Positions 1 through 43,984 of a stretch of DNA of 45,018 bases are shown here, in pieces (the first letter of the stretch is position 1; each line of letters begins with the position of its first letter). Where the stretch lies: IMG/VR virus record IMGVR_UViG_3300044510_000006, positions 1-45,018 of that record. One strand, 5' to 3'. A program made the translations under genes and the position numbers. The DNA is from a virus. The notes below the pieces were generated by a model. It was given only the letters and a program-made list of their open reading frames with translations. It was not told the DNA's origin and did no database searches.

Positions 1-127
1 AATCTGGGTGGAGCTAAAGAATTTAAGGCTAATATTCTCTCAATTCTTTCTAGTGAGCTAAATACTGGTGAAGTTGTAGAGATAACAGAAGTTTATTCAA
101 ATGATAATGGTCCAGTCGGTTTTGTTT
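1..127. repeat. Exact 127-bp direct repeat, left copy
   Basis: Bases 1-127 are identical to 44892-45018. The reading frame of the spike gene runs through the junction without a break. This is what remains when a circular (or circularly permuted) assembly is written out linearly; 127 is also a common maximum k-mer length in short-read assembly. It is therefore probably a circularity overlap, not a biological terminal repeat. Unique genome length would be 44,891 bp. Confidence 0.93.
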
Positions 128-11492: not shown

Positions 11493-11528
11493 ATTCTCAA
11501 TAGTAAATGAATTGAATGGATGTGTCAA
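11493..11528 (-). promoter_or_regulatory. Early leftward promoter with operator-like element
   Basis: On the minus strand TTGACA (11528-11523), a 17-bp spacer and TACTAT (11505-11500) form a near-consensus sigma70 promoter. The -10 box runs into TGAGAAT, giving the repeated TTTACTATTGAGAAT element (11507-11493). It drives the lipoprotein, recombination and dUTPase genes. Confidence 0.85.
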
Positions 11529-11861: not shown

Positions 11862-12635
11862 TCAACCACCAATAGAGCCCTTCAAGAAGAATAGCGCCGT
11901 TAAAATTGCAATAACAATTAAAATAATGATTCGTTCGCGCTTGATCTTTGATTTAAGGCTATCGACATTTGCTTCGTGAGAATTCTCCCCATACTCCAAT
12001 GCTTTTGATAGCTCACTGATTTGATATGAATCATGATCTTTAATTGATTTTAATCTATCAATTTGATCTTGTTTTTCTGAAATAATTTTCACATCCTTAT
12101 CATGAATTTTCTTGGCTTCATCGTTTTGCTTAATCAATCCACTGATAGCCAAATCTTTACTTTCGATAACCTTTTTAAGATCTGAAATTTCTTTGTCTTT
12201 CGATTCAATTTCATCAGCAAGGTTTGAAACAAAAGTATCGTCAACCTCTGGCTGATTTAGCAATTTATCCAGCTCAGCAATAACCTTATTCTGAACCTTT
12301 TCGCTTTGCGGCTGGTTAAGCATCTTGGCGATATAAGGGCGGGATTTACCCATCTTTAAAGATAATTCACTATTGTTTAAACCAAGTTCTTTTTTGGCTT
12401 GATGGATTTTTTTGATCATTTCATTTTCTGAATATTTCTCCATGAATTCATCAAAACTAATTTTCGATCCATTAGGGCGATCTGAAAACCAAAACACCTG
12501 ACCAACACCAACAGTAATATTTTTATTCCCTGTATGGTTATTATCATTTACTAATCCATGATTTATTAAAACTTTTTCCGCTTCATTTCTCTGATTTAAA
12601 TCTTTGCACATAATCGCAATATTTTCGATATTCAT
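11862..12635 (-). CDS. HTH protein with coiled coil and C-terminal membrane anchor
   Basis: 257 residues from the ATG at 12635, which has AGGAGA 8 nt upstream; a GTG at 12662 would sit at the transcription start and is rejected. Residues 84-108 (LGLNNSELSLKMGKSRPYIA) form a Cro/CI or KorB-type helix-turn-helix, residues about 140-212 a charged coiled coil with heptads, and residues 236-251 a hydrophobic helix (IIILIVIAILTALFFL) near the C-terminus. The arrangement predicts a DNA-binding protein held at the inner membrane. Its promoter is divergent from the small HTH gene, as in a regulatory switch. Role as repressor or DNA tether is inference. Confidence 0.72.
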   Translation of the reverse strand: MNIENIAIMCKDLNQRNEAEKVLINHGLVNDNNHTGNKNITVGVGQVFWFSDRPNGSKISFDEFMEKYSENEMIKKIHQAKKELGLNNSELSLKMGKSRPYIAKMLNQPQSEKVQNKVIAELDKLLNQPEVDDTFVSNLADEIESKDKEISDLKKVIESKDLAISGLIKQNDEAKKIHDKDVKIISEKQDQIDRLKSIKDHDSYQISELSKALEYGENSHEANVDSLKSKIKRERIIILIVIAILTALFFLKGSIGG

Positions 12636-12663
12636 CTTTGCTTCTCCTGTTAAGATAATCACT

Positions 12664-13202: not shown

Positions 13203-13214
13203 TTGAATATAATA

Positions 13215-13229
13215 TTTACTATTGAGAAT
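13215..13229 (+). promoter_or_regulatory. Operator-like element before the replication-side operon
   Basis: TTTACTATTGAGAAT, identical to the copies at 20057 and 28637. TACTAT (13217-13222) could be a -10 but the -35 position is poor; alternatively TTTACT (13215-13220), 17 bp and TAAGAT (13238-13243) could be the promoter with the element over its -35. Confidence 0.65.
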
Positions 13230-17204: not shown

Positions 17205-17240
17205 TTGCAATTATTCTCAATAGTATTTACTATTGAGAAT
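17205..17240 (+). promoter_or_regulatory. Promoter embedded in a perfect 28-bp palindrome
   Basis: TTGCAA (17205-17210), 17-bp spacer, TACTAT (17228-17233). The bases ATTCTCAATAGTA (17213-17225), TT, TACTATTGAGAAT (17228-17240) form a perfect dyad covering spacer and -10. A bound dimer would block the promoter. It drives the operon with the immunity-like gene. Confidence 0.85.
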
Positions 17241-20035: not shown

Positions 20036-20071
20036 TTGCATTAATTATAAATATAATTTACTATTGAGAAT
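20036..20071 (+). promoter_or_regulatory. Early promoter with TTTACTATTGAGAAT element
   Basis: TTGCAT (20036-20041), 17-bp spacer, TACTAT (20059-20064), and the operator-like element at 20057-20071. It lies 19 nt before the membrane-protein start and drives the long small-gene operon to 23127. Confidence 0.85.
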
Positions 20072-28620: not shown

Positions 28621-28636
28621 TCTAAACTATTTTATA

Positions 28637-28651
28637 TTTACTATTGAGAAT
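28637..28651 (+). promoter_or_regulatory. TTTACTATTGAGAAT element before the accessory operon
   Basis: Exact copy of the early operator element; TACTAT (28639-28644) is the -10. The -35 region is weak (TTTTAT). It puts the operon 28700-31576 under the same control as the early genes, although it lies inside the structural region. Confidence 0.75.
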
Positions 28652-35833: not shown

Positions 35834-36015
35834 GAGTATCAATACAAGTAAACTCAGAAAAGCTTTACCAAAAGATTGAAAAAGCCATTGAATATTTCAA
35901 GGGTGCAGAATCAAGACAATTGAATGATGTTGATCTTGGTAAGTGTTCAGATGATTACATTAAGGCAATACTTATATTTGATCAAACACTCTTCACAACA
36001 AAAGTTATAGATTAA
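35830..36015 (+). CDS. Small hypothetical protein before the clamp-like unit
   Basis: 61 residues overlapping the neck gene by ATGA. Mixed helical sequence (RVSIQVNSEKLYQKIEKAIE). It is unlike structural proteins and sits between the neck genes and the clamp-like insertion, so it may be part of the insertion. Not recognised. Confidence 0.55.
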   Translation: MRVSIQVNSEKLYQKIEKAIEYFKGAESRQLNDVDLGKCSDDYIKAILIFDQTLFTTKVID

Positions 36016-36027
36016 TTAAAACACCTA

Positions 36028-36056
36028 TTGCATTCTCAATAGTAAATAAATATAAT
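36028..36056 (+). promoter_or_regulatory. Strong promoter of the clamp-like gene, with operator element in the spacer
   Basis: TTGCAT (36028-36033), 17-bp spacer, TATAAT (36051-36056). The spacer contains ATTCTCAATAGTAAA (36032-36046), the early operator element in reverse orientation. On the minus strand the same element also forms a possible -10 (TACTAT), so transcription in both directions is conceivable. Confidence 0.85.
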
Positions 36057-36088
36057 TAAATCTCAATAATCTTTATCGGGAATTTAAA

Positions 36089-36646
36089 ATGAAATTTTTA
36101 AAAACTGTAGAAATCGAATACAAAAATTTAAAAGCAGCATCTATTTGCAAAGCAAAAAATGATGTTAGATTTTATTTAACTGGCGTCTACATTGGAGACG
36201 GATTTATTGCGTCAACAAATGGACATATTGCTTTAATTGTCGATGATGAAAACTTATCTGGCTTTGATCTAATTATTCCAGCAGAAACAATAGACTCTTT
36301 AATAAAAAAAGTTGGAAATAATCCAATGTTTAAAACTGTCAAATTGCATCAATTGGCTGAGGATAGTGATTTTTGGTTGCTTGATCATAATGGGTCGCTT
36401 GAGTTATTTAAACCAATTGATGGAAAATTTCCAGACATTAAAAAGGTTGATATTGAAAAACCAGAAAAAGTTGAATTTAAAAACTTTCCAAGTTTTGATT
36501 TTAATTATTTAAATTTATTTTTGAAAGTTGGTAAAATTCTTGGATTAAACCATTCTCCAGAAATATTCCCAACCACTGAAATAAATTGTGCTTATGTGGA
36601 ATTGACAGAAAAGGCGCATGGGCTGTTAATGCCAAGACGAATTTAA
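36089..36646 (+). CDS. Sliding-clamp-like protein (DnaN domains II-III, shortened)
   Basis: 185 residues, about half of DnaN. Residues 6-50 (KTVEIEYKNLKAASICKAKN, then DVRFYLTGV...STNGHIALI) resemble the start of clamp domain II (...DVRYYLNG...ATDGHRLA). IIPAETIDSLIKKV (62-75) and PIDGKFPDIKKV (109-120) match the next conserved parts (IVP...; DGRFPDY..V). The protein ends in LLMPRRI, like the VVMPMRL end of bacterial clamps that forms part of the partner-binding pocket. Domain I is missing. It has its own promoter and terminator inside the neck/tail operon. It could be a phage clamp, a clamp mimic or a decoy; homology is by eye. Confidence 0.7.
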   Translation: MKFLKTVEIEYKNLKAASICKAKNDVRFYLTGVYIGDGFIASTNGHIALIVDDENLSGFDLIIPAETIDSLIKKVGNNPMFKTVKLHQLAEDSDFWLLDHNGSLELFKPIDGKFPDIKKVDIEKPEKVEFKNFPSFDFNYLNLFLKVGKILGLNHSPEIFPTTEINCAYVELTEKAHGLLMPRRI

Positions 36647-36655
36647 TGTTAAAAT

Positions 36656-36683
36656 AGCCTCATCAAACGATGGGGCTTTTTTA
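36656..36683 (+). terminator. Terminator of the clamp-like unit
   Basis: AGCCTCATC (36656-36664), loop AAAC, GATGGGGCT (36669-36677), then six T. A -10-like TAAAAT (36650-36655) abuts its 5' arm and its 3' arm contains GGGG, the only ribosome-site-like sequence for the gene starting at 36684. Confidence 0.85.
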
Positions 36684-43665: not shown

Positions 43666-43730
43666 TTTCAGTGTGGCTAGAGATTGCAACTCGAAAGATG
43701 GGAGAGCCTACCATTGCCACACCAATTTAG
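43662..43730 (+). CDS. Possible 22-residue peptide behind the plug gene
   Basis: ATG at 43662 overlaps the plug stop (ATGA) and gives MISVWLEIATRKMGEPTIAT-PI before TAG. No family. It may be a remnant of a gene displaced by the insertion of the next gene, or noise. Confidence 0.3.
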   Translation: MISVWLEIATRKMGEPTIATPI

Positions 43731-43748
43731 GCTATAACGGAGGCAGTT

Positions 43749-43946
43749 ATGTACTATTTAGATGAAATTGAGTTGTTAGATAATTTACCAAAGAAAGACG
43801 ATATTAAATTAATATGTCAAGATTCTGATTGGTTTTACTTTGTTTTAAAAGATGATAAAAGACATAATTTATTTCAAATTCTTGAATCCTTAACAAGAAG
43901 AGAATTTGAGTTCTTAGCTCATAAGGTTATTAGTAAGTTATCGTAA
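43749..43946 (+). CDS. Small accessory protein inserted before the hub gene
   Basis: 65 residues, CGGAGG upstream. Acidic and hydrophobic (YYLDEIELLDNLPKKDDIKL) with a helical end (ESLTRREFEFLAHKVISKLS). It does not resemble structural proteins and is followed by its own terminator, so it looks like a passenger gene. Function unknown. Confidence 0.6.
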   Translation: MYYLDEIELLDNLPKKDDIKLICQDSDWFYFVLKDDKRHNLFQILESLTRREFEFLAHKVISKLS

Positions 43947-43958
43947 TTAAGTTATACT

Positions 43959-43980
43959 AGCCTCCAATACGGAGGCTTTT
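43959..43980 (+). terminator. Terminator of the inserted gene
   Basis: AGCCTCC, loop AATAC, GGAGGCT, then TTTT. A -10-like TATACT (43953-43958) abuts it. GGAGG in the 3' arm is the ribosome site of the hub gene at 43985, so the structure may also act on translation. Confidence 0.78.
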
Positions 43981-43984
43981 CATT

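What the first reader, a model, noticed from the sequence alone, without database searches (positions are those of the whole stretch)
36028..36683. Self-contained transcription unit for a shortened sliding clamp inside the tail operon
Seen: promoter TTGCAT-17-TATAAT, a 185-residue gene, and a terminator, all within the neck/tail gene cluster. The protein aligns by eye with DnaN domain II (DVRFYLTG...STNGHIAL; DGKFPDIKKV) and ends like a clamp (LLMPRRI vs VVMPMRL), but domain I is missing. Known: this is the layout of a moron. Inference: it could replace, recruit or poison the host clamp during early infection.
Basis: partly seen in the sequence, partly recalled or inferred. Interest (0 to 1): 0.8.

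Follow-up and report, generated by a model that had tools for sequence, protein, structure and literature searches.

The report
Phage pocket-only mini sliding clamp
An Acinetobacter phage carries, in an interchangeable gene slot, a cut-down copy of the bacterial DNA sliding clamp that keeps the pocket where other proteins dock but has lost the parts that build the ring, so it probably catches or redirects the host's clamp-binding proteins.

Summary
In detail: promoter TTGCAT-17-TATAAT at 36028, a 185-aa gene at 36089-36646, and a strong terminator at 36656-36677, between neck/head-tail genes of an Obolenskvirus. The protein is a shortened sliding clamp. Profile comparisons match it to DnaN domain II plus the second half of domain III (IIIb). 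Domain I and the first half of domain III, which hold both dimer surfaces, are absent. What remains contains the clamp's partner-binding pocket; 11 of 17 mapped pocket residues are identical to E. coli, and family-wide invariance is concentrated there. It belongs to a widespread phage family (239 GenBank phage records), variously named 'RusA-like resolvase' or 'DNA polymerase III beta subunit'. I found no functional study in the open-access library searched.

The unit is an interchangeable cassette. It sits at two different late-operon slots in relatives, and the same promoter precedes other genes there, several of them methyltransferases. Terminators are resident in the slots. The promoter carries a 15-bp motif found at six intergenic sites, conserved at the same places in phage AP22, so the cassette is wired into a phage regulon.

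Best explanation: a ringless clamp mimic that binds clamp-binding-motif proteins. A processive ring is unlikely. No structure prediction or experiment was available.

The parts
36011..36661 (+). Extent of the mobile cassette: the block that is about 95-96% identical between slot A (this phage) and slot B (phages Cato, BUCT628)
   Evidence: blastn of the window against L002 and L011; junctions read directly
36028..36056 (+). Promoter TTGCAT-17-TATAAT, shared with other accessory genes in slots A and B of related phages
   Evidence: unique in window; same promoter before different genes
36033..36047 (+). 15-bp motif TTCTCAATAGTAAAT inside the promoter spacer, one of six exact copies in the genome; proposed operator
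   Evidence: 6 found, 0 expected; 6 copies at the same places in AP22
36089..36646 (+). Mini-clamp gene, 185 aa, PHROG 3007 family
36089..36457 (+). Region homologous to DnaN domain II (residues 1 to about 123), with pocket residues R27 L30 T43 G45 H46 P115 V120
   Evidence: hhalign 99.9%, 3.5e-31
36458..36643 (+). Region homologous to the second half of DnaN domain III (residues 124-185), ending in the clamp C-terminal motif LLMPRRI
   Evidence: hhalign 97.2%, 2.9e-11 against IIIb and nothing against IIIa
36656..36677 (+). Intrinsic terminator; resident in slot A and also present in AbP2, which lacks the cassette
36016..36683 (+). Slot A, the variable accessory-gene position between the 61-aa gene after neck1 and the head-tail adaptor gene
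   Evidence: gap of 45-1347 bp in the 41 related phages measured in one piece
43666..43984 (+). Slot B, the second variable position between the tail X-like gene and the baseplate hub; in this phage it holds a 65-aa ORF (43749-43946), not the clamp
17213..17240 (.). Palindromic form of the motif, ATTCTCAATAGT-ATTT-ACTATTGAGAAT, upstream of an early-region gene
11494..11508 (+). Motif copy upstream of the leftward operon that includes the RecT-like and exonuclease genes
13214..13228 (-). Motif copy upstream of ORF 13243
20056..20070 (-). Motif copy upstream of ORF 20090
28636..28650 (-). Motif copy upstream of ORF 28700

Best explanation
The gene encodes a clamp mimic reduced to the client-binding pocket of DnaN: domain II plus the C-terminal half of domain III. 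It cannot close the normal two-subunit ring, because domain I and the part of domain III that pairs with it are gone. Most likely it works as a soluble competitor: host proteins that carry a clamp-binding motif (polymerase subunits, the clamp-loader delta subunit, Hda, MutL, translesion polymerases, or clamp-dependent defence proteins) dock on it instead of on the host clamp, which shifts the replication and repair machinery to the phage's advantage. The phage encodes its own replication initiator and DnaB-like helicase, but no DNA polymerase was found, so it depends on the host replicase. The gene is an optional cassette (moron) in a plug-in slot. Its promoter carries a phage-wide 15-bp operator-like motif, so it is probably expressed together with the phage's early regulated genes. 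Shown: the domain make-up, the pocket conservation, purifying selection, cassette mobility between two slots, and the shared promoter and motif. Inferred: that the pocket binds client peptides, that the protein is not a ring, the timing, and the benefit to the phage.
For: Profile comparison: head to domain II 99.9% (3.5e-31); tail to IIIb 97.2% (2.9e-11); nothing to domain I or IIIa. Single-profile scans agree: domain II in 54 of 54 members, domain I and IIIa in none. The A2 profile matches E. coli DnaN in two pieces, about 137-258 and 306-366. Pocket residues as listed in PMC11139829: 11 of 17 mapped are identical. Invariant family positions are enriched in the pocket: 7 of 11 in an alignment not selected by motif (Fisher p 4e-6), and 6 of 6 in the larger alignment with the search motif excluded (p 1e-7). 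dN/dS is 0.02-0.10. No family A, B or C DNA polymerase was detected in the phage record; an initiator and a DnaB-like helicase are present. Cassette at two slots; promoter shared with other genes; motif regulon. Other slot occupants include three classes of DNA methyltransferase, typical of host-takeover or counter-defence genes.
Against: No structure prediction could be obtained, and nothing here shows binding. Pocket positions R176, L177, N320 and M364 are changed (to I47, A48, D137, R183), so client preference may differ from the host clamp's. Some relatives lie next to replication genes, for example DNA polymerase I in phage 4316, which would fit a helper role as well as a decoy role. A decoy needs high expression, which was not measured.
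Confidence: 0.5

Rival explanations
1. Recruiter: the mini-clamp acts as an adaptor that brings host polymerase or other clamp clients to the phage replisome or to phage recombination intermediates. It helps phage replication directly rather than depriving the host.
For: The client pocket is conserved. In phage 4316 the gene sits between DNA polymerase I and VRR-NUC/helicase genes; in Ab9 it lies near an O-like replication gene. No polymerase was detected in this phage.
Against: It is dispensable within the genus (7 carriers found, against 66-67 Obolenskvirus records with the slot flanks) and it sits in a moron slot, not in the replication module. Of the window ORFs screened, only the portal protein has a consensus clamp-binding motif, no more than chance would give.
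Confidence: 0.25
2. Counter-defence protein: it neutralises a specific host defence effector that docks on the clamp or carries a clamp-binding motif, as a pocket decoy for that effector.
For: Other occupants of the same slots include N6-adenine, N4/N6 and C5-cytosine methyltransferases. In phage DS8 the relative lies close to an anti-restriction gene.
Against: No specific target is known; PADLOC gives no match.
Confidence: 0.12
3. A smaller ring: four mini-clamps, each with three of the clamp's beta-alpha-beta units, assemble into a 12-unit ring and serve as a phage processivity clamp.
For: Arithmetic only: 3 units x 4 = 12, the unit count of the DnaN dimer ring.
Against: Both natural dimer surfaces (domain I and IIIa) are missing. 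No phage polymerase was found in this phage.
Confidence: 0.04
4. A decayed clamp remnant without function.
For: Two Egyptian phage records (SPA, SPB) carry copies without an intact frame.
Against: dN/dS 0.02-0.10, the pocket is conserved across a diverse phage family, and the promoter is conserved. Several other genes in SPA and SPB are also annotated as short, so sequencing errors are likely there.
Confidence: 0.03
5. A RusA-like Holliday junction resolvase, as the PHROG label says.
For: phrog_3007 (5.6e-32) bears that label.
Against: None of the 45 members scanned matches a RusA Pfam model, while 40 match dnaN. AP22 has a separate annotated RusA gene (ORF89). The profile alignments are to DnaN.
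Confidence: 0.01

Closest known systems
Bacterial beta sliding clamp DnaN (TIGR00663; Pfam PF02767 central domain)
   Same: Homologous domain II and C-terminal half of domain III; the client-binding pocket including the MPxR C-terminus
   Different: Half the length; no domain I and no first half of domain III, hence no known ring interface; TIGR00663 score 23 bits against a cut-off of 137.65
PHROG 3007 / 12598 phage proteins (annotated RusA-like resolvase, DNA polymerase III beta subunit, beta clamp domain protein)
   Same: Same family, full-length match, same truncated layout in Kagunavirus, Deseoctovirus, Pseudomonas and other phages
   Different: This copy is a slot-borne moron under a phage-wide motif; many relatives are in early or replication modules, or antisense among structural genes
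Phage Twort Gp168 clamp inhibitor
   Same: A phage protein aimed at the host clamp system
   Different: Gp168 binds the clamp's DNA channel (PMC11139829) and is not described there as clamp-like; this protein is itself clamp-derived
Morons of lambdoid phages
   Same: Own promoter and terminator, patchy presence, different GC, placed among late genes (general knowledge)
   Different: Promoter and slot are shared by many unrelated cassettes, and the terminator stays with the slot
PeSL promoter/stem-loop cassettes of T4-type phages (Arbiol 2010, Comeau 2014; cited in PMC4503421)
   Same: Conserved promoter and stem-loop sequences linked to shuffling of accessory genes
   Different: Found here in a 45-kb Obolenskvirus; promoter and stem-loop lie on opposite sides of the exchanged gene; the original papers could not be read

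Membership tests
DnaN beta sliding clamp | Central domain (domain II) homology | tested here: met
   hhalign 99.9%, 3.5e-31; 54 of 54 members
DnaN beta sliding clamp | Three full domains | tested here: not met
   Domain I and IIIa absent; 185 aa
DnaN beta sliding clamp | Client-binding pocket residues | tested here: met
   11 of 17 mapped residues identical, 2 more conservative (R246K, V360L); invariance enriched there
DnaN beta sliding clamp | NCBI curated score cut-off for dnaN | tested here: not met
   23 bits against 137.65
DnaN beta sliding clamp | Forms a DNA-encircling ring | not testable with these tools
   Interface regions absent by sequence; no structure job available
PHROG 3007 | Full-length profile match | tested here: met
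   5.6e-32, residues 6-185 of 185
RusA resolvase | Match to a RusA Pfam model | tested here: not met
   No such Pfam match in 45 members
Moron | Present in some relatives, absent in others, at a conserved position | tested here: met
   7 carriers found, against 66-67 records with the slot flanks; replaced by other genes or nearly empty
Moron | Own promoter | tested here: met
   (sequence evidence only; transcription not measured)
Moron | Own terminator carried with the gene | tested here: not met
   The terminator is resident in the slot: same terminator in AbP2 without the gene, a different one in slot B
T4-type PeSL | Composite promoter plus stem-loop element in T4-like phages | tested here: not met
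   Obolenskvirus; the elements flank the gene on opposite sides. Functional analogy only

The most novel reading that the evidence does not exclude
A large, mislabelled family of phage 'pocket-only' clamps exists: ringless fragments of DnaN, kept by strong selection, that act as soluble hubs or decoys for proteins using the clamp-binding motif. Obolenskviruses trade such genes through standard plug-in slots whose promoter is already wired into the phage regulon.
Probability: 0.4. Interest if true: 0.8.

Novelty: new variant of a known kind. Interest (0 to 1): 0.6.

Why it matters
If the mini-clamp is a client decoy, phages have reduced one of the most conserved protein hubs in bacteria to its interaction pocket and use it against the host. 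That would explain a common but misannotated phage gene, give a natural protein scaffold for studying and inhibiting clamp interactions (an antibiotic target), and make a clear test possible. Separately, the slots show how small lytic Acinetobacter phages swap accessory genes while keeping them under phage control.

Tried and rejected
Scans with the diverse alignment A1 failed for lack of a conserved stretch; a DNA pattern for AKND[VIM]R[FY]YL was used instead, so the invariance of that motif in A2 is an artefact of selection and was excluded from the test. Searching the viral collection with the single protein found nothing. A sample of 249 genomes from one phylum, at a strict cut-off, gave almost only chromosomal full-length DnaN, so the short form is mainly a phage and prophage protein. 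Clamp-binding motifs in the phage's own proteins: one QLSLF, in the portal protein, no more than chance would give. An antisense promoter at 36066-36039 was considered; its -35 is not seen in most of the other cassettes read, so it was set aside. Literature: no study of a shortened phage clamp was found in the open-access library; subscription journals were not searched.

Full report
What was checked. The unit at 36028-36683 is real. A TTGCAT-17-TATAAT promoter starts at 36028 and is the only TTGnnn-16..18-TATAAT in the 45-kb record. A 185-codon gene runs from 36089 to 36646, and a 9-bp GC-rich hairpin with a T run follows at 36656-36677 (-19 kcal/mol, z -6.2). The record is an Obolenskvirus (Acinetobacter myovirus), judged from its nearest relatives. 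The gene has 29.6% GC against 37.7% for the window.

What the protein is. Single-sequence matches are weak but all point the same way: Pfam DNA_pol3_beta_2 0.07, PHROG 947 processivity factor 1.6e-7, PDB beta clamps from 2.3e-4, TIGR00663 3.4e-5. The strongest hit is PHROG 3007 (5.6e-32), labelled 'RusA-like Holliday junction resolvase'. None of 45 family members matches a RusA Pfam model, 40 match dnaN, and phage AP22 has a separate annotated RusA gene, so the label is not supported.

Anatomy. A profile of 45 relatives matches E. coli DnaN in two pieces, about residues 137-258 and 306-366. Comparing profile halves with DnaN sub-profiles built from 15 DnaN sequences (14 taken from genomes, plus E. 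coli) gives domain II 99.9% (3.5e-31) for the first part and domain III second half (IIIb) 97.2% (2.9e-11) for the tail, with no match to domain I or to the first half of domain III. Scans of 54 members agree: domain II in all, domain I and IIIa in none. In E. coli the ring closes between domain I of one subunit and domain III of the next (general knowledge); Ile272/Leu273, whose mutation gives a monomer (PMC11139829), lie in the missing half. The normal ring interface is therefore absent on both sides.

Pocket. The client-binding pocket of the clamp is made by domain II and the C-terminal part of domain III (residues listed in PMC11139829). Of 17 mapped positions, 11 are identical in this protein: R152, L155, T172, G174, H175, P242, V247, Y323, M362, P363 and R365. 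Two more (R246K, V360L) are conservative, and four differ (R176I, L177A, N320D, M364R). In an alignment of nine relatives not chosen by motif, 7 of 11 invariant positions are pocket residues (Fisher p 4e-6). In the larger alignment, with the search motif excluded, 6 of 6 are (p 1e-7). dN/dS against relatives is 0.02-0.10. Selection has kept the pocket after the ring was lost.

Distribution. tblastn finds relatives in 239 of 50,697 phage records, mostly Salmonella, Escherichia and Klebsiella phages, annotated inconsistently. They are also in plasmid records and many viral contigs. In a sample of 249 genomes nearly all hits were full-length chromosomal DnaN. Neighbourhoods vary: next to DNA polymerase I in phage 4316, near an O-like replication gene in Ab9, close to anti-restriction and ParB-like genes in DS8, and antisense between head and portal genes in a Kagunavirus.

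Cassette and slots. In IME284, ZC3 and SHI, and in degraded form in SPA and SPB, the gene sits at the same position as here, slot A. In Cato and BUCT628 a block about 95-96% identical (window 36011-36661) sits at another position, slot B, between a tail gene and the baseplate hub. A published phage, pT2784, also lists it at slot A (PMC13141903). The shared block starts at the -35 region and ends in the first arm of the terminator (TAGCCTC). Each slot has its own terminator: AbP2 has the slot A terminator without the gene. A more distant viral contig (L127, 79% identity) carries the gene at the slot B position behind a TTGCAT-17-TATAGT promoter with a different spacer.

A shared plug-in design. 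The same promoter precedes unrelated genes in the slots of other Obolenskviruses: a D12-class methyltransferase in slot A and a C5 methyltransferase in slot B of L017 (here the slot A promoter has four mismatches), a 129-aa membrane-like protein in slot A of L024 and slot B of L022, and others. Cato carries an N4/N6 methyltransferase in slot A. Slot A length ranges from 45 to 1347 bp in the 41 related phages measured in one piece, in roughly 20 size classes; one further record spans its own sequence ends and could not be measured directly.

Regulation. The promoter spacer contains TTCTCAATAGTAAAT. This 15-mer occurs six times in the window (none expected in shuffles), always between genes near start sites, once within a 12-bp inverted repeat. 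AP22 has exactly six exact copies at the same six places, including slot A with a different gene. This is best read as an operator; the regulator is unknown, with window 11862-12662 (phrog_14474, weak HTH_3) a candidate. The unit is therefore not autonomous but wired into a phage regulon. Early expression is plausible, because other copies precede the RecT/exonuclease operon and early-region genes, but it is not shown.

Mechanism. This phage encodes an initiator and a DnaB-like helicase, and no family A, B or C polymerase was detected, so it depends on the host replicase. A ringless protein that keeps the client pocket is best explained as a soluble competitor for clamp-binding-motif proteins (confidence 0.5). 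A recruiter for phage replication (0.25), a specific counter-defence decoy (0.12) and a tetrameric ring (0.04) are the rivals.

Verdict. The protein is a reduced member of the clamp superfamily, not a functional DnaN by the curated criteria. It is filed as a new variant of a known kind, with interest 0.6.

Noticed in passing
window 11494, 13228, 17239, 20070, 28650, 36033 (and AP22, L180, at 24, 8953, 17149, 35831, 37514, 43043): Exact 15-mer TTCTCAATAGTAAAT at six syntenic intergenic sites in both phages: an apparent phage-wide operator, with its palindromic form at 17213-17240. The regulator is not identified.
   Followed up: partly
Slots A (36016-36683) and B (43666-43984), and the equivalent places in L017-L025, L176-L179: Two plug-in accessory-gene slots with a common promoter and slot-resident terminators; occupants include three classes of DNA methyltransferase, a Band_7 protein, small membrane-like proteins and several unknowns.
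   Followed up: partly
PHROG 3007 and 12598: Family label 'RusA-like Holliday junction resolvase' appears to be wrong; members are clamp-derived. The label has spread into many phage records.
   Followed up: yes
L127 3520-4071: A related phage carries the mini-clamp at slot B with the same promoter spacing but a different spacer (TTTACTGTAGCGAATTGATATAGT), suggesting that its regulon uses a different operator.
   Followed up: no
L026, L058, L096 and others (many contigs from viral contigs): A large sub-group of about 188-aa mini-clamps ('MIIQSKLIRAALVCAAKNDVRYYLNG...MPCRDDAFKVVEEHLA') with a C-terminal extension; five similar contigs carry a 120-residue frame with a different C-terminal end.
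   Followed up: no
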